Assembly: GCA_003155415.1 (NCBI GenBank)
Contig: PMCP01000020.1
Span: 1,900 to 60,713 of the forward strand
Reading direction: 5' to 3'
DNA length: 58,814 bases
Origin: Gammaproteobacteria bacterium
GTDB lineage: Bacteria > Pseudomonadota > Gammaproteobacteria > Steroidobacterales > Rariloculaceae
In this document: piece after piece, positions 22,007 to 29,321 of the stretch
Layout of the letters: every line of letters begins with the position of its first letter
Numbering within the stretch: the first letter of the stretch is position 1
The notes under the pieces: model-generated
Database searches by the model: none
What the model saw: only the letters and a program-made list of their open reading frames with translations
What the model was told of the DNA's origin: nothing
Position numbers and translations under genes: made by a program

Positions 22007-22306
22007 ATGGCGCACGATCTGCGTTGCTACCGCTGCGGCACGTCCCTCGACGCTCTGACCCTGCCCCTAGCGCGGCTCGACGAGTGCCCGCAGTGTCGCG
22101 TGCACCTGCACGTGTGCCGCATGTGCGAGCGCTTCGCTCCGCGCAAACCGAAAGGCTGCAGCGAAGAGGACGCCATCGAAGTGCGCGACAAGAAGGGGGC
22201 GAATTTCTGCGATTACTTCAAGCCCAGCGCACGCGCCTACGACTCGGCGGAGCAGACCGCAGAACAGGCCGCACGCTCGCAGCTCGACTCGCTGTTCAAG
22301 AAATAG
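22007..22306 (+). CDS. Small Cys-rich zinc-ribbon protein
   Basis: The 99-residue protein has three CxxC pairs (Cys7/10, Cys27/30, Cys37/40) plus Cys51 and Cys68, enough for two zinc sites. The N-terminus reads LRCYRCGTSLDAL, then DECPQCRVHLHVCRMCERF. The C-terminal third is helical and charged (EQTAEQAARSQLDSLFKK). It looks like a conserved proteobacterial zinc-ribbon protein of unknown function. It starts immediately after the ogt stop, so it may assist DNA repair or simply share the transcript. Confidence 0.8.
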   Translation: MAHDLRCYRCGTSLDALTLPLARLDECPQCRVHLHVCRMCERFAPRKPKGCSEEDAIEVRDKKGANFCDYFKPSARAYDSAEQTAEQAARSQLDSLFKK

Positions 22307-22431: not shown

Positions 22432-23631
22432 ATGCTCGTCGGCGGCGCTATGGCTCGTCGGGCGCACGCTCTGGAACAACGGCTCGGCACCGACGGCCGA
22501 GGCTGGATCGTCTGGGCGTGCTTTGCTCTTTTGGTGCTGCTCGCGAAAATCGACAGCACCGACTCGATCGAGAACGTGTTCAGTGTCTACCGCGACGCCG
22601 GACTGCGTTGGCTGCGCGGCGAAGACCTCTACCCCACGCAGTTTCGCTTCAACTATTTCCCCCCCTCCGCGCTGTTCTTCGCGGCGTTCAGTTGGCTGCC
22701 GTTCGGGCTCGAGGGCGCGATTTGGCGCATTGCCAACATCGGCGTGTTCGCGTTCGGGCTCTCAAGAATCAGCGGCTGTGGTGAACAGCCGATCCCGCGA
22801 GCGCGCTTCTTCATCGCGACCGTCGTCACGGTGGTATTGAGCGCGAGCGCCGCGCGCTACGGACAACTGACGCTTGCGATGTCGGGCCTCATGATGGCGG
22901 CGGTTGCCGACGTCGAGAGTGGAGCGTTGTGGCGCGCAGCCATTCTGATTGCGCTCGCCGTGGCATTGAAACCCCTGGCGCTCGTGCTGGCCTTGCTGCT
23001 CGTCGCTATCTATCCGCGAGTGCTCTGGCGTACCGCAGTCGCAGTCGCGCTGATCTTTCTGCTGCCGTTCCTGTTTCAGCACACCGACTACGTGCTGCGG
23101 CAATACGCGGACGTGCCGGCCATGCTCGATGCCCGGTCGCATCAGCGCTACGAGTGGCAGCACCTCTTCGGGCTGGTCGAGAAGCTGGGGTGGGTCACGA
23201 CGAACGCGGAGCAGACAGTCGTCAGTGGCGCGACGGCTGTGTTCGTCCTGTTCCTGTGCTGGCGCGCCCGACAACGTGCACCTGCTGTGGGCGCGGCGCT
23301 CACGCTATATGGGCTCGCGAGTTGCTACATCCTGCTGTTTGGCACGGCCACGGAACGCAATACGTTCGCGATGCTGGCGCCGGTCATCGGTCTCGCCGCG
23401 GCGACAGCGTGGCAGTCCAGGGACCGCGGTCTGCTTGCCTTCTTCAGCGCCTTGGCGTGGATCATGTTGCTGAGTCACACGCTGCAGCGTGCATTCCCGC
23501 ACACGGCCCTCGCCATGGCGAAACCGTTCGCGTGCCTGCTGCTGTTCGTGTGGCTGGCGTGGACGGCGTTCGGTGCATCCACCGAAGCGAGCAAACGCCA
23601 GGCGTCACGCCCTCCGCCCCCGAGGAACTGA
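22432..23631 (+). CDS. GT87/DUF2029-like polytopic membrane protein
   Basis: The 399-residue protein has about ten hydrophobic segments. It shows the DUF2029/GT87 look: an early acidic loop SVYRDAGLRWLRGEDLYPTQ followed by FNYFPPSALFFAAFSWLPFG. These inner-membrane proteins use polyprenyl-phosphate-linked sugars, for example mannose or arabinose, as donors. The start ATG 22432-22434 has a GGAGGAA site 6 bases upstream. The C-terminal tail is cytosolic and basic. No partner glycan genes flank it, so acceptor and donor are unknown. Confidence 0.78.
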   Translation: MLVGGAMARRAHALEQRLGTDGRGWIVWACFALLVLLAKIDSTDSIENVFSVYRDAGLRWLRGEDLYPTQFRFNYFPPSALFFAAFSWLPFGLEGAIWRIANIGVFAFGLSRISGCGEQPIPRARFFIATVVTVVLSASAARYGQLTLAMSGLMMAAVADVESGALWRAAILIALAVALKPLALVLALLLVAIYPRVLWRTAVAVALIFLLPFLFQHTDYVLRQYADVPAMLDARSHQRYEWQHLFGLVEKLGWVTTNAEQTVVSGATAVFVLFLCWRARQRAPAVGAALTLYGLASCYILLFGTATERNTFAMLAPVIGLAAATAWQSRDRGLLAFFSALAWIMLLSHTLQRAFPHTALAMAKPFACLLLFVWLAWTAFGASTEASKRQASRPPPPRN

Positions 23632-23638
23632 CGCGGCG

Positions 23639-24529
23639 TTACTTCTCGCCGCCCTGGGCGACGGTGCGGCGGGCCTCGAGCAGCGAACGCCGCATATCGA
23701 TGGCGATCGTGGCGTCCGGCGCGACCTTCGAATCCTTGTCGAGCTCTTCAACGACGCGCACGTCCGTATCGCTCAACGTCGGCAGATTGACCGAGGTCGT
23801 GGCCGTGCCACTCTCGCCTCGCAGCAGCTGGTACTTGCGCTTCCAAGCGTCGGAGTTACGGCGCAGCTCGGCGATCGTGGCCGCGTGCTTGTTCGTCGAT
23901 GCCTCGAGCTGCTCGATGATTTCCTGTTTCTGATCCAAGGTGGTTCGCAACGCGGCAACGCGCTCTTGGTCGGCGCGCAGGCTCTTGATCAGCGTCTTGC
24001 GAGCTTCCAGCTCCGCACGCAGTGATTCGATCTCGGCCAACTCCTCGGCGTGCTGGCCTGCGGCCTCGCGCAGCGCGTCGGCCTCCATCGTGGAGTTAGC
24101 GGCCTGTTGCTCGGCGCGCTTCAATTGTGCGCGCAGCTCATCGAGCTCGCGATCCTTGGCCTTGGTGTCTGTCTTGGCGCGGTCGACGTTCTCCACGTCG
24201 CGCCGCAGCGCGCGCACGAGATCCTTCTTGCTCTCGAGCTCCGACGCTACGCGCTCGATCTCGAGATCGCGGGCGCGAACCTCTTCGCGCAACTTCGAGC
24301 TTTCCTCGGCGTCACCGCGGAGCGCTTCGATCAGCGTTTGTTGACCGTCCAGGCGTTGCTTCAGGGAATCGAGCTCTTGGTGCCGCCCGGCAGCTCCTTC
24401 TTCGAGCTCTGCCACGCGCGCGCGTTTGGACTCCAGCTCTTCGAGCACCGTCGAAAGCTCGGAGCCCCAATCGGCTAACAAGCCTGTCAGTCGCTCACGC
24501 ACGTCCTGAATTGAGTTTTCGTCCGCCAT
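23639..24529 (-). CDS. Coiled-coil protein with tandem 38-residue repeats
   Basis: The 296-residue protein is almost entirely coiled coil. Residues 60-211 divide exactly into four back-to-back 38-residue units, which begin LDGQQTLIEALRGD, LESKKDLVRALRRD, LKRAEQQAANSTME and LEARKTLIKSLRAD. They end EIERVASE, ELDELRAQ, EIESLRAE and IIEQLEAS. Residues 22-59 look like a degenerate fifth unit. The C-terminus has the motif WKRKYQLLRGE and a Thr/Ser-rich tail. No signal peptide or membrane segment is present. It precedes the Kor genes on the same strand but ends convergently with the GT87-like gene (7-base gap). Function unknown; a cytoplasmic scaffold is plausible. Confidence 0.75.
   Translation of the reverse strand: MADENSIQDVRERLTGLLADWGSELSTVLEELESKRARVAELEEGAAGRHQELDSLKQRLDGQQTLIEALRGDAEESSKLREEVRARDLEIERVASELESKKDLVRALRRDVENVDRAKTDTKAKDRELDELRAQLKRAEQQAANSTMEADALREAAGQHAEELAEIESLRAELEARKTLIKSLRADQERVAALRTTLDQKQEIIEQLEASTNKHAATIAELRRNSDAWKRKYQLLRGESGTATTSVNLPTLSDTDVRVVEELDKDSKVAPDATIAIDMRRSLLEARRTVAQGGEK
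23897..24352 (-). repeat. Four tandem 114-base coding repeats
   Basis: This segment encodes residues 60-211 of the coiled-coil protein as four contiguous units of 114 bases. The protein repeats are divergent (units 1, 2 and 4 share the xTLI/V-x-x-LR-x-D opening; unit 3 is the most eroded), so the duplication is old and not a recent slippage product. Confidence 0.6.
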
Positions 24530-24661
24530 TGGCCCGCACCCCTACGGTTAGCGGACTTAACGTGCCGGTTTTACCTGTGAATTACGGTGATTTACGTCAC
24601 AACTGCGGCGGTGTTGGCGCTGGGCGCCCGGTCGGGCGCACGCGAACAGCCGAGCGCGGCG

Positions 24662-25717
24662 CTAACGGTAGCGTTTCTGCAGCGCCGCGAGCGATTCCGG
24701 CCCGGGGCAGAGCTGCTCGTATGGGACCTGGTTCAGCGGCGTTTCAATCGTGGAATTCGCGCCATGCAGATCGGGCTGGGACTCGTCTATATATAGCAGG
24801 CCGGTCACGATCTCGCCGGCACGATGGCGCGTGCGCAGGTATTCGATGGCCTCGCCGCGATTGCCGATGTCGTAGTCGTTGGCCAACTTGCGCAGCAGCA
24901 GGCGGCTGCCGTCGTGCAACTCCACGGGCAGCACGTCGCCCTCATCGTACGCCGCCATGATTTCTTCCTCCGGCGGCACGAAGTCCGTATGAATCGCTCG
25001 CAAGTTGAACTCACGCGCGTGCTCATAGCTCTTCGTCGAGCCCTCGTGGTCGTTGAATGTCACACACGGCGACACGACATCGAGCAGCGCAAAGCCCCGG
25101 TGGCTGATGCCCGCCTTGATCAGCGGCACTAGCTGTTCCTTGTCGCCGGAAAAGCTGCGGGCGACGAACGTTCCGCCGAGCGCGAGCGCCATCTGCACGG
25201 GGTCGATCGGCGGCTGACGGTTCTCTTCGCCACGTTTGTTTTTCGCGCCAAGATCAGCGGACGCGGAGAACTGCCCCTTCGTGAGCCCATACACCCCGTT
25301 GTTCTCGATGATGTACAGCATGTCGAGATTACGGCGCAGCGCATGCATGAACTGGCCTAGCCCAATCGATAGGGAGTCGCCATCGCCGGAGACGCCGAGC
25401 AGGTACAAGTCGCGATTCGCCGCACTGGCGCCGGTGGCGATCGACGGCATTCGGCCGTGCACCGAGTTAAAGCCGTGCGAGGCGCTCAAGAAATAGGCTG
25501 GCGTCTTCGACGAGCAACCGATACCGCTCATTTTTGCCACGCCGTGCGGCGGAACGCCGAGTTCGAAACACGCTTGCACAATCGAAGCCGTAATCGAATC
25601 GTGTCCGCAGCCTGCGCACAGCGTCGACATGCCGCCTTCGTAGTCGCGCACGGTGAGGCCGAGCACGTTACGCGCGAGCCCCGAGTGGACGATCTTCGGT
25701 TTCGCAATCGACGTCAT
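24662..25717 (-). CDS. korB: 2-oxoacid:ferredoxin oxidoreductase, beta subunit
   Basis: The 351-residue protein carries the thiamine-diphosphate-binding motif GDGDSLSIGLGQFMHALRRN ending in IIENNGVYGLTKGQ, and the N-terminal cysteine motif CAGCGHDS for one 4Fe-4S cluster. With the alpha/gamma subunit it would convert 2-oxoglutarate (or another 2-oxoacid) plus CoA to the acyl-CoA while reducing ferredoxin. ATG 25715-25717 overlaps the korA stop as ATGA; the longer open frame is antisense-like low-complexity sequence. It is the last gene of the three-gene operon. The KorB label is by similarity to 2-oxoglutarate types and could be another 2-oxoacid. Confidence 0.9.
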   Translation of the reverse strand: MTSIAKPKIVHSGLARNVLGLTVRDYEGGMSTLCAGCGHDSITASIVQACFELGVPPHGVAKMSGIGCSSKTPAYFLSASHGFNSVHGRMPSIATGASAANRDLYLLGVSGDGDSLSIGLGQFMHALRRNLDMLYIIENNGVYGLTKGQFSASADLGAKNKRGEENRQPPIDPVQMALALGGTFVARSFSGDKEQLVPLIKAGISHRGFALLDVVSPCVTFNDHEGSTKSYEHAREFNLRAIHTDFVPPEEEIMAAYDEGDVLPVELHDGSRLLLRKLANDYDIGNRGEAIEYLRTRHRAGEIVTGLLYIDESQPDLHGANSTIETPLNQVPYEQLCPGPESLAALQKRYR

Positions 25718-27534
25718 GCGGCTACTCCTGCGGCCGCAGCCTGCCCGAGCGCTTCGAGGATGCAGCGGCAGTCCATCGGCAAACCGCCGTAGTGCAGGAT
25801 CGACGTCATGCGCGAGGACGGATATTGCGTCTCCGCCATGAGCAGCGTCTTCAGCTGCGCGTCGCGATTCTGCTCCACGACGAACACGCGCTCGTGCTGC
25901 TCGAGGAACTGCGTGACCTTCTTGCCGAAGGGAAACGCGCGGACGCGGCAATAGTCCGCGTACACGCCCTGCTTCGCGAGGAGGTCGAGCGCTTCGTCTA
26001 TCGCAGAGTCGCTGCTGCCGACGGCCACGATGCCCCACTTCGTGGGCTGGCGCGAGCGCCGAATCTCAGGTTGCGGCACGAGCGTCGCCGCCGTCCGCCA
26101 CTTCTTGGCAAGCCGGTCCAGCACCTGTTGGTACTCGGCCGAGTCCTCGGTATAGCCGCCGTACTGGTTGTGCCCCGATCCGCGCAGGAAATACGAGCCG
26201 CGCGGGTGCACGCCCGGCAGCGTGCGATACGGGATGCCGTCGCCATCGACATCGGTATAGCGGTGGAACGTCTTCGCCGCTTCGAGCTCTGCGGCCGACA
26301 GCACTTTGCCGCGGTCCGGTCGATAGGTGGCGTCCCAGGTCAGCTCTTTGCACATCCAGTCGTTCATGCCGATGTCGAGATCCGACATCACGATGACCGG
26401 CGTCTGCAGCCGCTCGGCGAGATCGAAGGCCGTTACCGCGAGCTCGAAGCACTCGCGCGGATCGCGTGGGAATAGCAGCACGTGCTTCGTGTCGCCGTGA
26501 GACGCATAGGCCGCCGCCAGCAAGTCACCCTGTTGAGTTCGCGTGGGCATGCCCGTCGAAGGCCCCACGCGTTGCACATCGAACAGCACGGCCGGTAACT
26601 CGGTGAAATAGGCGAACCCCAAGAACTCCGTCATCAACGAGAGGCCGGGCCCGCTCGTCGGGGTGAATGAACGCGCACCGTTCCACGAGGCGCCGAGCAC
26701 GATGCCAATGGCCGCAAGCTCGTCCTCTGCCTGGACGATGCAGTAACGCCGCTCGCCGGTTTTTGGATCTTTGCGGTAACGCTCGCAGAACGCCTTGAAC
26801 GCATCCATGATCGAAGTGGACGGCGTGATGGGATACCACGCGCCAACCGTGGCGCCGGCATAAACGCAGCCGAGCGCCGCGGCCGTATTGCCATCGATCA
26901 TGATGTGCCCGGCCGTCTTGTTCAGCGTCTTGACGCGCAGCGGCAGCGGGCACTCGAAGTTGGCACGCGCGTAGTCGTAGCCGAGATCGAGAGCCTTCGT
27001 GTTCGACTCGAGAAGCGCGGGTTTCTTCGCGAACGTCTCCTCGACGAGCTTAGCGATGACTGCTCGGTCGAGATCGAGCAATGCCGCGAGCGCGCCGACG
27101 TACGCCATGTTCTTCATCAGCACGCGCGTGCGAACGTTCGCAAATTGCTCGTTGCACATGCGCGCGAGCGGCACGCCGATGATCGTAATGTCGGGCCGCG
27201 CCAGCAGCCGGTCGCGCGGCCAAGTCGAGTCGTAGATCAGAACTCCGCCGGGCGCCACTTCTTGCAGATCGCGCGTATACGTCTGCGCGTTCATTGCAAT
27301 CATGATGTCGACTGAGCCGGAGCGTGCAAGATAGCCGTCTTTGCTGATTCGGATCTCGTACCAGGTGGGCAACCCCTGAATGTTCGACGGGAAGAAATTC
27401 TTGCCCGTGACCGGGATGCCCATGCGGAAGACAGTCTTCATGATCAGCGCGTTGGCACTGGCCGAGCCGGTGCCATTCACGTTGGCGATCTTCAGGACGA
27501 AGTCGTTTACCCGGCTTTTCTGCTGTTTTGCCAC
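25714..27534 (-). CDS. korA: 2-oxoacid:ferredoxin oxidoreductase, fused gamma-alpha subunit
   Basis: The 606-residue protein joins the gamma domain (about 1-190; NDFVLKIANVNGTGSASANA and TGKNFFPSNIQGLPTWYEIR) to the alpha pyrimidine-binding domain (GAWYPITPSTSIMDAF, then QAEDELAAIGIVLGASWNGA and TSGPGLSLMTEF). The C-terminal domain has VAVGSSDSAIDEALDLLAKQ. The start is GTG 27532-27534 with a GGCGAGG site, so it overlaps the end of the upstream GltD-like gene by 28 bases. Together with KorB it forms the CoA-acylating, ferredoxin-reducing enzyme. The fused gamma-alpha form is common in aerobic Proteobacteria and Actinobacteria. Confidence 0.9.
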   Translation of the reverse strand: MAKQQKSRVNDFVLKIANVNGTGSASANALIMKTVFRMGIPVTGKNFFPSNIQGLPTWYEIRISKDGYLARSGSVDIMIAMNAQTYTRDLQEVAPGGVLIYDSTWPRDRLLARPDITIIGVPLARMCNEQFANVRTRVLMKNMAYVGALAALLDLDRAVIAKLVEETFAKKPALLESNTKALDLGYDYARANFECPLPLRVKTLNKTAGHIMIDGNTAAALGCVYAGATVGAWYPITPSTSIMDAFKAFCERYRKDPKTGERRYCIVQAEDELAAIGIVLGASWNGARSFTPTSGPGLSLMTEFLGFAYFTELPAVLFDVQRVGPSTGMPTRTQQGDLLAAAYASHGDTKHVLLFPRDPRECFELAVTAFDLAERLQTPVIVMSDLDIGMNDWMCKELTWDATYRPDRGKVLSAAELEAAKTFHRYTDVDGDGIPYRTLPGVHPRGSYFLRGSGHNQYGGYTEDSAEYQQVLDRLAKKWRTAATLVPQPEIRRSRQPTKWGIVAVGSSDSAIDEALDLLAKQGVYADYCRVRAFPFGKKVTQFLEQHERVFVVEQNRDAQLKTLLMAETQYPSSRMTSILHYGGLPMDCRCILEALGQAAAAGVAA

Positions 27535-29321
27535 TGTGCCTCGCCGGCCCGCGATTCCTCGGCCGCGTAAGGGATTTTTACCGTCGATTTCTGCATGTCC
27601 CACGCACCCGTGGGGCACCGCTCGGCGCACAGCCCGCAGTGCACGCAAATGTTTTCATCCTTCAGCATCACACGCCCCGTTTGGGGCAACGGCTCGGACA
27701 CGTACAGCGGCTGTGTGGGATTTTGTCGCGGCGTCTTGAGCCTCTCGTCGATCTCCGTCGCGTCCCCGTTCGGTGCGATAGTGAGGCAGTCGACGGGACA
27801 GATGTCGATACACGCGTCGCACTCGATGCAGAGCTTCGGCGTGAACGCCGTCTGGATGTCGCAGTTGAGACAACGTTCGACCTCAGTTGCGATCTGCTCG
27901 ACGCTGAAGCCGAGCTCGACCTCGATGTTCAGCTTCTTGAAGCGCTTGGTGAGCTCGACGTGCGGCATGATGCGTCGCTCGGCGGGCTCATATCCGTTGC
28001 TGTAGCTCCACTCGTGAATGCCCATTTTGGCCGTCGTGAGATTCACACCTCGCGGCAGGCGCTCCGTGGTGGCCATGCCCTGACAATGCTTGTGGATCGA
28101 GATGGCCGCCTCGTGGCCGTGCTTCACGGCCCAGATGATGTTCTTCGGACCGAACGCGGCATCGCCGCCGAAGAACACGCCCGGGCGCGTGGACTGGAAC
28201 GTGACCGTGTCGATCACCGGCACCTCGTGGCGATCGAAACCGATGCCCAAATCACGCTCGATCCACGGGAATGCGTTCTCCTGCCCGATCGCGAGCACAA
28301 CGTCGTCGCACGGCAGAAACACGTCGCGCAGTACCTTTTGGCCGACGATATCGTCGCCCTGAAATTCGTATTCGAGCTCCTCGAACTGCATGCCAACGAG
28401 CTTGCCGTTTTCCATGACGAACGCTTTCGGCGAGTAGTTGACGACGATTTCCACGCGTTCTTCTTCCGCGTCCTCGAGCTCCCACTCCGAAGCCTTGAAG
28501 AACCGCCGCGGCTTGCGGGCGATGACTTTGACGTCCTTGGCACCGAGCCGCAGCGAGCTGCGGCAGCAATCCATCGCCGTGTTGCCGACGCCGATGATCA
28601 GCACGCGCGCGCCGACGGATTTCGTATGGCCGAACGCGATCGAGCCGAGCCAATCGATGCCGATATGGATGCGGTCGCTCGCGTCGCGCCCGGGCAAACG
28701 CAGATCCTTGCCTTTCGGGGCGCCGCTGCCGACAAACACGGCGTCGAAACCGTCGTCGAGCAGTGCTTTCAGGCTTTGTACCGGCGAGGAATAGCGCACG
28801 TCGACACCGAGCCGCGTGATGTAGCCGATCTCGTCGTCGAGCACCGAAGTGGGCAACCGAAACGCCGGAATGTTCGTGCGCATGAGGCCGCCCGGACGAT
28901 CGAGCGCCTCGAAAACCACGCACTCGTACCCGAGCGGCGCGAGATCGTTGGCCACGGTCAGCGAAGCGCAGCCGGCCCCGACGAGCGCGACACGTTTCCC
29001 GTTGCGCACCTCAGGCGCCCGCGGCAGGCGGTCTTCGATGTCGCCGCGATTGTCGGCGGCCACGCGCTTCAAACGGCAGATGGCGACGGGCTCGGCCTCC
29101 ACGCGTCCGCGCCGACATGCCGGCTCGCACGGGCGGTCGCATACTCGGCCCAGGATGCCGGGGAATACGTTCGACTCGCGATTCAGCAGGTACGCGTCGG
29201 CGAAGCGGCCCTGGGCGATGAGGCGAATGTACTGGGGTACGTCGGTATTCGCGGGGCACGCCCACTGACAGTCGACGACGCGGTGAAAATACTCCGTGCC
29301 CGCTGTATCCGTGGGTTCCAT
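27507..29321 (-). CDS. GltD-like FAD oxidoreductase with two ferredoxin clusters
   Basis: The 604-residue protein has a GltD-type N-terminal Fe-S domain (CQWACPANTDVP, then VCDRPCEPACRRG), an FAD site (GKRVALVGAGCASLTVANDL), an NAD(P) site (ARVLIIGVGNTAMDCC) and GVFFGGDAAFGPKNIIWAVK. The C-terminus adds two 4Fe-4S motifs, CIECDACIDICPVDC and CVHCGLCAERCPTG. It should pass electrons between NAD(P)H and ferredoxin-like clusters. As the first gene before korA and korB, it probably couples the 2-oxoacid oxidoreductase to NADP+ reduction or the reverse. It is not a glutamate synthase subunit: no large subunit is near. Confidence 0.88.
   Translation of the reverse strand: MEPTDTAGTEYFHRVVDCQWACPANTDVPQYIRLIAQGRFADAYLLNRESNVFPGILGRVCDRPCEPACRRGRVEAEPVAICRLKRVAADNRGDIEDRLPRAPEVRNGKRVALVGAGCASLTVANDLAPLGYECVVFEALDRPGGLMRTNIPAFRLPTSVLDDEIGYITRLGVDVRYSSPVQSLKALLDDGFDAVFVGSGAPKGKDLRLPGRDASDRIHIGIDWLGSIAFGHTKSVGARVLIIGVGNTAMDCCRSSLRLGAKDVKVIARKPRRFFKASEWELEDAEEERVEIVVNYSPKAFVMENGKLVGMQFEELEYEFQGDDIVGQKVLRDVFLPCDDVVLAIGQENAFPWIERDLGIGFDRHEVPVIDTVTFQSTRPGVFFGGDAAFGPKNIIWAVKHGHEAAISIHKHCQGMATTERLPRGVNLTTAKMGIHEWSYSNGYEPAERRIMPHVELTKRFKKLNIEVELGFSVEQIATEVERCLNCDIQTAFTPKLCIECDACIDICPVDCLTIAPNGDATEIDERLKTPRQNPTQPLYVSEPLPQTGRVMLKDENICVHCGLCAERCPTGAWDMQKSTVKIPYAAEESRAGEAQWQNSRKAG

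What the first reader, a model, noticed from the sequence alone, without database searches (positions are those of the whole stretch)
23639..24529. Coiled-coil protein made of four exact-length 38-residue repeats
Residues 60-211 split into four contiguous 38-residue units with matching opening and closing motifs. A 38-residue period does not fit simple heptads (35 or 42) and suggests a specific superhelical register or hendecad mix (for example 11+11+16 or 27+11). Length is strictly conserved though sequence has drifted.
Basis: seen in the sequence. Interest (0 to 1): 0.5.

Follow-up and report, generated by a model that had tools for sequence, protein, structure and literature searches.

The report
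Coiled-coil rod with 38-residue units
This gene encodes a long rod-shaped bacterial protein whose helix carries a 38-residue pattern, five ordinary seven-residue turns plus three extra residues, an uncommon kind of coiled-coil irregularity that also shows up in longer rods of related bacteria.

Summary
The 38-residue period is real, but three of the four proposed units carry it (1, 2, 4); unit 3 does not. Lag 38 beats all composition and heptad-preserving shuffles and 997 of 1000 class-preserving ones. Unit 1 to unit 2 spacing is 38 in 6 of 9 orthologues, else 45, 52 or a weak 24: all 3 modulo 7. The core pattern is 35+3: five heptads with one three-residue 'stammer' per unit. Longer coiled-coil proteins of the same order carry a similar motif pair (15 of 18 spacings 38 or 45), but lag 38 stands out only in those first found by similarity to this protein (10 of 13), not in seven others (0 of 7). 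Inferred stammers are frequent here and scarce in SMC controls. No Pfam or NCBIfam model reaches its cut-off. AlphaFold gives one helix 4-237, a disordered linker and a short tail helix. Most likely a cytosolic scaffold rod, encoded behind a 2-oxoacid:ferredoxin oxidoreductase operon in one clade; the function is inferred.

The parts
23639..24529 (-). Coding sequence of the coiled-coil protein, 296 aa plus stop
   Evidence: orthologues in 8 other genomes
24422..24508 (-). Conserved N-terminal cap, residues 8-36 (LRERLT.LLADWG.EMS..L.ELE)
   Evidence: invariant R11, L14, L18, A19, W21, G22, S26, L29, L32 in 9 of 9
24230..24343 (-). 38-residue unit 1, residues 63-100, inferred stammer near residue 74
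24116..24229 (-). 38-residue unit 2, residues 101-138, inferred stammer near residues 112-119
24002..24115 (-). Spacer, residues 139-176: of unit length in this protein but without the unit's sequence; its length varies in orthologues
23888..24001 (-). Unit 4, residues 177-214, with the best conserved stretch of the rod (ARKTLIKSLRAD.ER), inferred stammer near residue 188
23831..23845 (-). End-of-coil motif WKRKY, residues 229-233, with similar ends in several long relatives
23711..23818 (-). Linker predicted without firm structure, residues 238-273
   Evidence: AlphaFold pLDDT below 50 at 238-253 and 266-275; a low-confidence helix 255-263 lies between
23654..23710 (-). C-terminal tail peptide, residues 274-292 (TIAIDMRRSLLEARR); helix 280-292
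   Evidence: T.AI[DN]M present in 7 of 9 orthologues
24662..26038 (-). Upstream gene: thiamine-pyrophosphate subunit of a 2-oxoacid:ferredoxin oxidoreductase (korB-like); ORF as listed, true start uncertain
   Evidence: PF02775; directly upstream in the window and in 7 of 7 other f1 loci with the orthologue
25714..27648 (-). korA-like subunit (POR, POR_N); ORF as listed, true start uncertain
27507..29321 (-). FAD / 4Fe-4S oxidoreductase, first gene of the same run

Best explanation
It is a cytosolic rod protein. Residues 4-237 form one long helix that most likely pairs (inferred: parallel homodimer, about 35 nm by the usual rise per residue) into a coiled coil. Three stretches of the rod carry a 38-residue unit made of five heptads plus three extra residues, i.e. 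one stammer per unit just after the motif L[IV]..L...[DE]A, with Lys/Arg/Gln prevailing at two of the inferred core positions (1 and 25). Each stammer shifts the register by three and, by what is known of stammers, locally overwinds the helix; in-phase stammers should favour pairing with a chain that has stammers at the same places. The conserved cap with an invariant Trp at one end, and a flexible linker with a conserved short helix at the other, look like two docking points, so the rod would act as a scaffold or spacer that holds partners at a fixed distance. Shown by computation: repeat, best-fitting register, orthologues and relatives, helix prediction, gene order. Inferred: dimer, parallel orientation, stammer geometry, selective pairing, scaffold role.
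For: Repeat against shuffles. Inferred core positions 5, 8, 12, 15, 18, 22, 25, 29, 32, 36, 39 in 25 aligned units, steps 3-4-3-3-4-3-4-3-4-3-4 = 38. The 35+3 layout has the highest score and highest shuffle z among the layouts tried in 6 of 6 orthologues with the 38 spacing, in one (L008) by little (z 4.3 against 4.1). With phase fixed from the orthologues it beats best-phase heptad and hendecad in 6 of 6 long relatives from families f1, f2, f3, f4, f9 and f11, which were chosen because they have the 38 spacing. A test that does not depend on spacing, stammer against uninterrupted heptads behind the first motif, favours the stammer in 10 of 11 long relatives reached earlier and 5 of 6 newly reached ones, one of these by 0.1. 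Register tracing puts a stammer in unit 1 in 9 of 9, unit 2 in 8 of 9 and unit 4 in 9 of 9 orthologues. Same-method control: 28 stammers in 1907 coil residues here, 34 in 5182 in 12 long ORFs, 2 in 5616 in SMC pieces, 0 in 519 of E. coli MukB, SbcC and RmuC. Spacing equals 3 mod 7 in 9 of 9 orthologues and in 15 of 18 motif pairs of 17 long relatives. Helix 4-237, helix 280-292. Stammer physics and partner selection: passages of PMC4786415 and PMC9369452.
Against: No structure, oligomer prediction or expression data. The layout and tracer tests use core preferences that I wrote by hand; a layout of period 38 has a built-in advantage on sequences picked for a 38 spacing. The long relative of the window's own genome goes against the pattern: spacing 39, and heptads score better than the stammer there (-2.3 against -8.0). 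In the seven box proteins not reached before by similarity to this protein, lag 38 is among the top three lags in 0 of 7 (against 10 of 13 of the others), and 4 of the 6 with a motif pair have 45 instead. The tracer also calls other register breaks: 7 stutters and 5 others in the orthologues, and 28 six-residue and 22 five-residue breaks in SMC. Block 3 breaks the array. Orthologues come from two bacterial families only, so they are not 9 independent cases. Nothing in the family libraries points to a function.
Confidence: 0.55

Rival explanations
1. An ordinary heptad coiled coil; the 38 spacing is only the trace of an old internal duplication and has no structural meaning.
For: Units 1, 2 and 4 do look like duplicated sequence; best-phase heptad scores are positive in 6 of 6 orthologues and z is close to that of 35+3 in L008; class-preserving shuffles reach the lag-38 score in 3 of 1000; the long relative in the own genome fits heptads better.
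Against: The heptad layout scores lower than 35+3 in 12 of 12 sequences (sequences with the 38 spacing). Length changes between units 1 and 2 keep the 3-residue phase shift in 9 of 9 orthologues and 15 of 18 pairs in long relatives, which a neutral trace would not need.
Confidence: 0.2
2. Hendecad-type (right-handed or straight) coil.
For: None found here beyond 38 not being a multiple of 7.
Against: 38 is not a sum of 7s and 11s; hendecad and 18/5 layouts score negatively in 6 of 6 orthologues, hendecad in 6 of 6 long relatives.
Confidence: 0.02
3. The short rod co-assembles with the long relative of the same cell through the shared motif pair; the stammers act as a pairing code.
For: All 9 genomes with the short protein also have a long box protein; 11 of the other 387 genomes of the order sample do (the two calls were taken to have drawn the same 396 genomes). 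Motif pair and WKRKY-like end occur in both.
Against: Within a genome the two spacings agree exactly in 4 of 9 (G009, G013, G017, G023: 38/38), differ by one in G000 (38/39) and disagree in 4 (G014 52/45, G002 24/45, G001 45/53, G010 38/57). Co-occurrence follows a clade.
Confidence: 0.13
4. Accessory or scaffold subunit of the 2-oxoacid:ferredoxin oxidoreductase encoded upstream.
For: korB-like gene directly upstream on the same strand in the window and in 7 of 7 other f1 loci with the orthologue.
Against: 11 of 18 f1 korB loci examined have no related coiled-coil gene on the same strand in the 1.5 kb behind korB (one, in G016, has a small heptad-rich ORF on the other strand); in G023 the orthologue is not beside kor genes; the gap to korB is 132 bases here and roughly 100-210 in relatives.
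Confidence: 0.12

Closest known systems
Long coiled-coil relatives in the same bacterial order (380-900 aa, unnamed; box ALK.G.D.LR..K)
   Same: Motif pair mostly 38 or 45 residues apart, inferred stammers, a similar N-terminal cap in several (Trp kept in the f4, f9 and f11 proteins read), WKRKY-like end in the f1 and f3 ones
   Different: Mostly longer; carry the ALK.G.D.LR box (by eye much varied in the f9 protein), which this protein lacks; other gene neighbourhoods
Stammer-containing coiled coils (trimeric autotransporter stalks, L1ORF1p, MITF/TFE zippers), as mentioned in passages of PMC4786415 and PMC9369452
   Same: Three-residue insertion into heptads; expected local overwinding and possible partner selectivity
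   Different: The passages seen do not describe stammers repeated at a fixed distance; here they recur with the 38-residue unit
SMC / Rad50 / MukB-type coiled coils
   Same: Generic charged coiled-coil composition; SMC and Rad50 models are among the best NCBIfam matches, all far under cut-off; PADLOC gives weak SMC-like matches (LmuB, JetC; best E 1.7e-6)
   Different: 296 aa without ATPase head domains; almost no stammers in SMC by the same tracer
Crescentin and other intermediate-filament-like bacterial rods
   Same: Long cytosolic coiled-coil rod (recalled; start of the abstract of PMC10873595 seen in a search listing)
   Different: No such family among the Pfam or NCBIfam matches shown; filament formation untested

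Membership tests
Coiled coils with stammers (decad discontinuities) | Three-residue insertion in a heptad background | tested here: met
   By sequence only:
Coiled coils with stammers (decad discontinuities) | Local overwinding or 3-10 turn in a structure | not testable with these tools
   No multimer prediction or coordinates available
Hendecad coiled coils | 3-4-4 core spacing | tested here: not met
   Negative layout scores in 12 of 12 sequences
Long coiled-coil relatives with the ALK.G.D.LR box | Motif pair with a 3 mod 7 spacing | tested here: met
   38 here; 15 of 18 pairs in long relatives
Long coiled-coil relatives with the ALK.G.D.LR box | ALK.G.D.LR..K box | tested here: not met
   The box profile finds one place in this genome, G000:C3, not the window
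SMC/Rad50/MukB ATPases | Reaches the curated model cut-off | tested here: not met
   Best 32.5 bits against a cut-off of 300 (ASRP); SMC_prok_B 29.1 against 567.35
Crescentin / intermediate-filament-like rods | Filament assembly in vitro or in cells | not testable with these tools
   Needs experiment
2-oxoacid:ferredoxin oxidoreductase subunits | Kept beside kor genes wherever it occurs | tested here: not met
   Beside korB in 8 of 9 loci, not in G023

The most novel reading that the evidence does not exclude
A bacterial family of rods uses repeated stammers, spaced 38 residues or 38 plus whole heptads (3 mod 7), as a built-in pairing code: only chains with stammers in the same phase can wind together, which sorts long and short rods of one cell into defined homo- or hetero-assemblies and gives an overwound superhelix of about 38/11 residues per turn.
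Probability: 0.17. Interest if true: 0.65.

Novelty: new variant of a known kind. Interest (0 to 1): 0.4.

Why it matters
PMC4786415 states that the vast majority of coiled-coil structures that leave the heptad have periodicities above 3.5 and assumes 10/3 as the lower limit (passages). A protein family that repeats a stammer and mostly keeps the 3-residue phase while gaining or losing whole heptads would be natural material for testing what overwinding is for, in particular whether stammer phase selects partners. It also gives a handle on a set of rods, found here only within one order, that the family libraries searched do not name.

Tried and rejected
Hendecad, decad, 18/5 and 39/11 layouts. 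Family libraries: Pfam, NCBIfam, PADLOC, PHROGs (no match); Pfam and NCBIfam matches are generic coiled-coil ones under cut-off. Solved structures: one weak match to a Hook3 chain, E 0.0082, taken as compositional. Promoter and terminator scan of 23600-24750: none found. Class sample with the box profile: 1 of 369 genomes, the window's own. Literature searches for stammer plus coiled coil (20 of 35 and 20 of 26 papers listed) and 38-residue coiled-coil repeats (4 papers): no listed title or abstract start describes a bacterial family with repeated stammers; this is a statement about those listings only. Within-genome matching of short and long spacings as a sign of co-assembly: exact in 4 of 9, so not claimed. 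The box-profile search as an independent test of lag 38: weakened on checking, because its seeds came from proteins first found by similarity to this protein; see the full report. Notebook slips corrected here: entry 3 says lag 38 is among the top three lags in 11 of 20 long relatives, one search gives 10 of 20; entry 4 says 9 of the 10 stutters of the orthologues lie in the N-cap, one search shows 8.

Full report
What was claimed and what is there. The ORF at 23639-24529 (minus strand, 296 aa) has blocks starting at residues 60, 98, 136 and 174. Ungapped comparison gives BLOSUM62 sums of 62 (1 with 2), 52 (1 with 4) and 62 (2 with 4), but 1, 13 and 1 for block 3. Lag 38 has the best local self-match of lags 5-119 (115; next 76 with 92, then 24, 114, 52, 14). 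Of 1000 shuffles each, 0 composition, 0 heptad-preserving and 3 class-preserving shuffles reach 115 at lag 38; over any lag, 0, 0 and 1 of 300 do. So the period is real, three of the four units carry it, and much of the signal lies in the residue classes. There is no DNA-level tandem array of this period.

Orthologues. A search of 58 genomes found full-length orthologues in 8 besides the own one; an alignment-based search of 396 genomes of the order gave the same 9 genomes plus weak coiled-coil matches. Invariant residues cluster in an N-terminal cap (R11, L14, L18, A19, W21, G22, S26, L29, L32) and in unit 4. A motif matrix of 18 positions, shorter than the unit so that 38 is not built in, gives unit 1 to unit 2 spacings of 38 (6 of 9), 45, 52 and a weak 24; all are 3 modulo 7. 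Unit 2 to unit 4 varies (76, 77, 73, 76, 69, 76, 69, 76, 53). The matrix was trained on sites of these same proteins, so the spacings, not the scores, are informative.

Register. In 25 gap-free aligned units the hydrophobic positions are 4/5, 8, 12, 15, 18, 22, 29, 32 and 36 (15 and 36 in 68% of units), with Lys/Arg/Gln prevailing at 1 and 25. Core steps of 3-4-3-3-4-3-4-3-4-3-4 sum to 38: five heptads plus one extra three, a stammer at positions 12-15-18. Positions 1 and 25 are 24 and 14 apart in turn, which fits the side lags 24 and 14. Over 76 residues the 35+3 layout outscores every other layout tried in 6 of 6 orthologues with the 38 spacing (for this protein 15.7 against 6.6 for heptads and -12.0 for hendecads). 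That is partly circular because the layout came from the same family. With the phase fixed, 35+3 also wins against the best heptad and best hendecad phase in 6 of 6 long relatives (13.1/8.9/-3.5; 17.5/11.0/-8.2; 16.6/11.3/-5.8; 15.2/6.9/-5.9; 9.4/5.6/-11.4; 5.4/0.7/-10.7), but these six were picked for having the 38 spacing. A test without that choice compares, behind the first motif only, a stammer with uninterrupted heptads: the stammer scores better in 15 of 17 long relatives, 10 of 11 reached earlier and 5 of 6 newly reached, one of the latter by only 0.1; the exceptions are L086 and L077, the latter from the window's own genome (the three f16 proteins among the 20 were left out for lack of a clear motif pair).

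A wider family. Longer coiled-coil proteins of the order (380-900 aa) share the motif pair; several share a WKRKY-like end and a similar N-terminal cap. I built a profile of a different region, the ALK.G.D.LR..K box. It hits 20 of 396 genomes of the order and 1 of 369 of a class sample, the own genome. In the part behind the box, lags 14 and 38 have the highest mean self-score of 88 lags, and lag 38 is among the top three lags in 10 of 20 proteins. This is not an independent test: the ten seeds of the profile, and 13 of the 20 proteins, had already been reached by similarity to this protein. All 10 successes lie among those 13; among the 7 newly reached (G001, G010, G014, G022, G037, G060, G071) there are none. 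Measured between motif pairs that I picked by eye, 15 of 18 spacings in 17 proteins are 38 or 45, i.e. 3 mod 7; the exceptions are 39, 57 and 53. Among the newly reached, 4 of 6 are 45 and none is 38. So what the wider family seems to keep is the phase rather than the number 38.

How unusual. A simple register tracer with hand-written core preferences finds 28 stammers and 7 stutters in 1907 coil residues of the 9 orthologues, and 34 stammers and 6 stutters in 5182 of 12 long ORFs. The same filter and tracer give 2 stammers and 5 stutters, but 28 six-residue and 22 five-residue breaks, in 5616 residues of 20 partly overlapping SMC pieces from ten genomes, and 0 stammers in 519 residues of MukB, SbcC and RmuC. 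A stricter filter gave 23-27, 31-33 and 0-1 stammers for the first three sets at three penalties. In the C-terminal parts of the 20 box proteins the tracer gives 42 stammers and 2 stutters, with 50 breaks of other kinds. The SMC pieces are homologous to one another, so there are few independent controls. Passages of PMC4786415 say that stammers overwind the helix and that most departures from the heptad go the other way; a passage of PMC9369452 says that stammers can give binding specificity by requiring the same phase in the partner.

Structure. AlphaFold2 on the nine-sequence alignment gives mean pLDDT 84.3 and pTM 0.29: one helix 4-237 (ten-residue blocks at 85-97 from residue 11 to 230; 69 for the first block), low confidence at 238-253 and 266-275, a short uncertain helix 255-263 and a helix 280-292. 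A single-chain model cannot show the partner or the core.

Surroundings. Upstream, on the same strand, lie a korB-like, a korA-like and an FAD/4Fe-4S gene. korB is directly upstream in the window and in 7 of 7 other f1 loci with the orthologue. But 11 of 18 f1 korB loci examined have no related gene behind korB, and in G023, of another family, the orthologue is not beside kor genes. The link is thus a feature of one clade. Every genome with the short protein also has a long relative (9 of 9; 11 of the other 387), yet their spacings agree exactly in only 4 of 9 genomes. Named records behind four orthologues are metagenome-assembled genomes, three labelled Gammaproteobacteria and one Rhodospirillaceae; one, ZC4RG20, is from compost (passages of PMC8434746).

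Conclusion. The best reading is a cytosolic coiled-coil rod with repeated stammers and a docking point at each end. The rod is well supported, the register fairly well within the orthologues and less firmly in the wider family; the scaffold role and any pairing code are inference.

Noticed in passing
L073:7001-9691 (+), also L094, L095, L096: About 900-aa coiled-coil proteins of family f16; the one read in full has two hydrophobic stretches near its N-terminus and inferred stammers 31, 38 or 39 residues apart within its coil stretches, with larger gaps between stretches.
   Followed up: partly
L087, L088, L089, L092, L093 (C-termini): Relatives of family f2 end in a shared tail TGT[VIM][KR]LR (5 of 5), perhaps the counterpart of the TIAIDMR tail here.
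   Followed up: no
L072:7637-10166 (own genome, contig C3): The long relative in the window's own genome is split over two ORFs at undetermined bases in the contig.
   Followed up: no
window 22007-22306 (+): 99-aa Cys-rich, zinc-ribbon-like protein (by eye) with no Pfam match, kept beside the methylguanine methyltransferase gene in relatives including G023.
   Followed up: partly
L069, L070, L071, L072: In f1 the long relative lies near genes that look like dacA and, in some, ybeD and lipB (named from memory of such sequences, not tested).
   Followed up: no
L060 (JAHEKF010000001.1): Record labelled Rhodospirillaceae although it carries the same locus as records labelled Gammaproteobacteria; the label may be wrong.
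   Followed up: no
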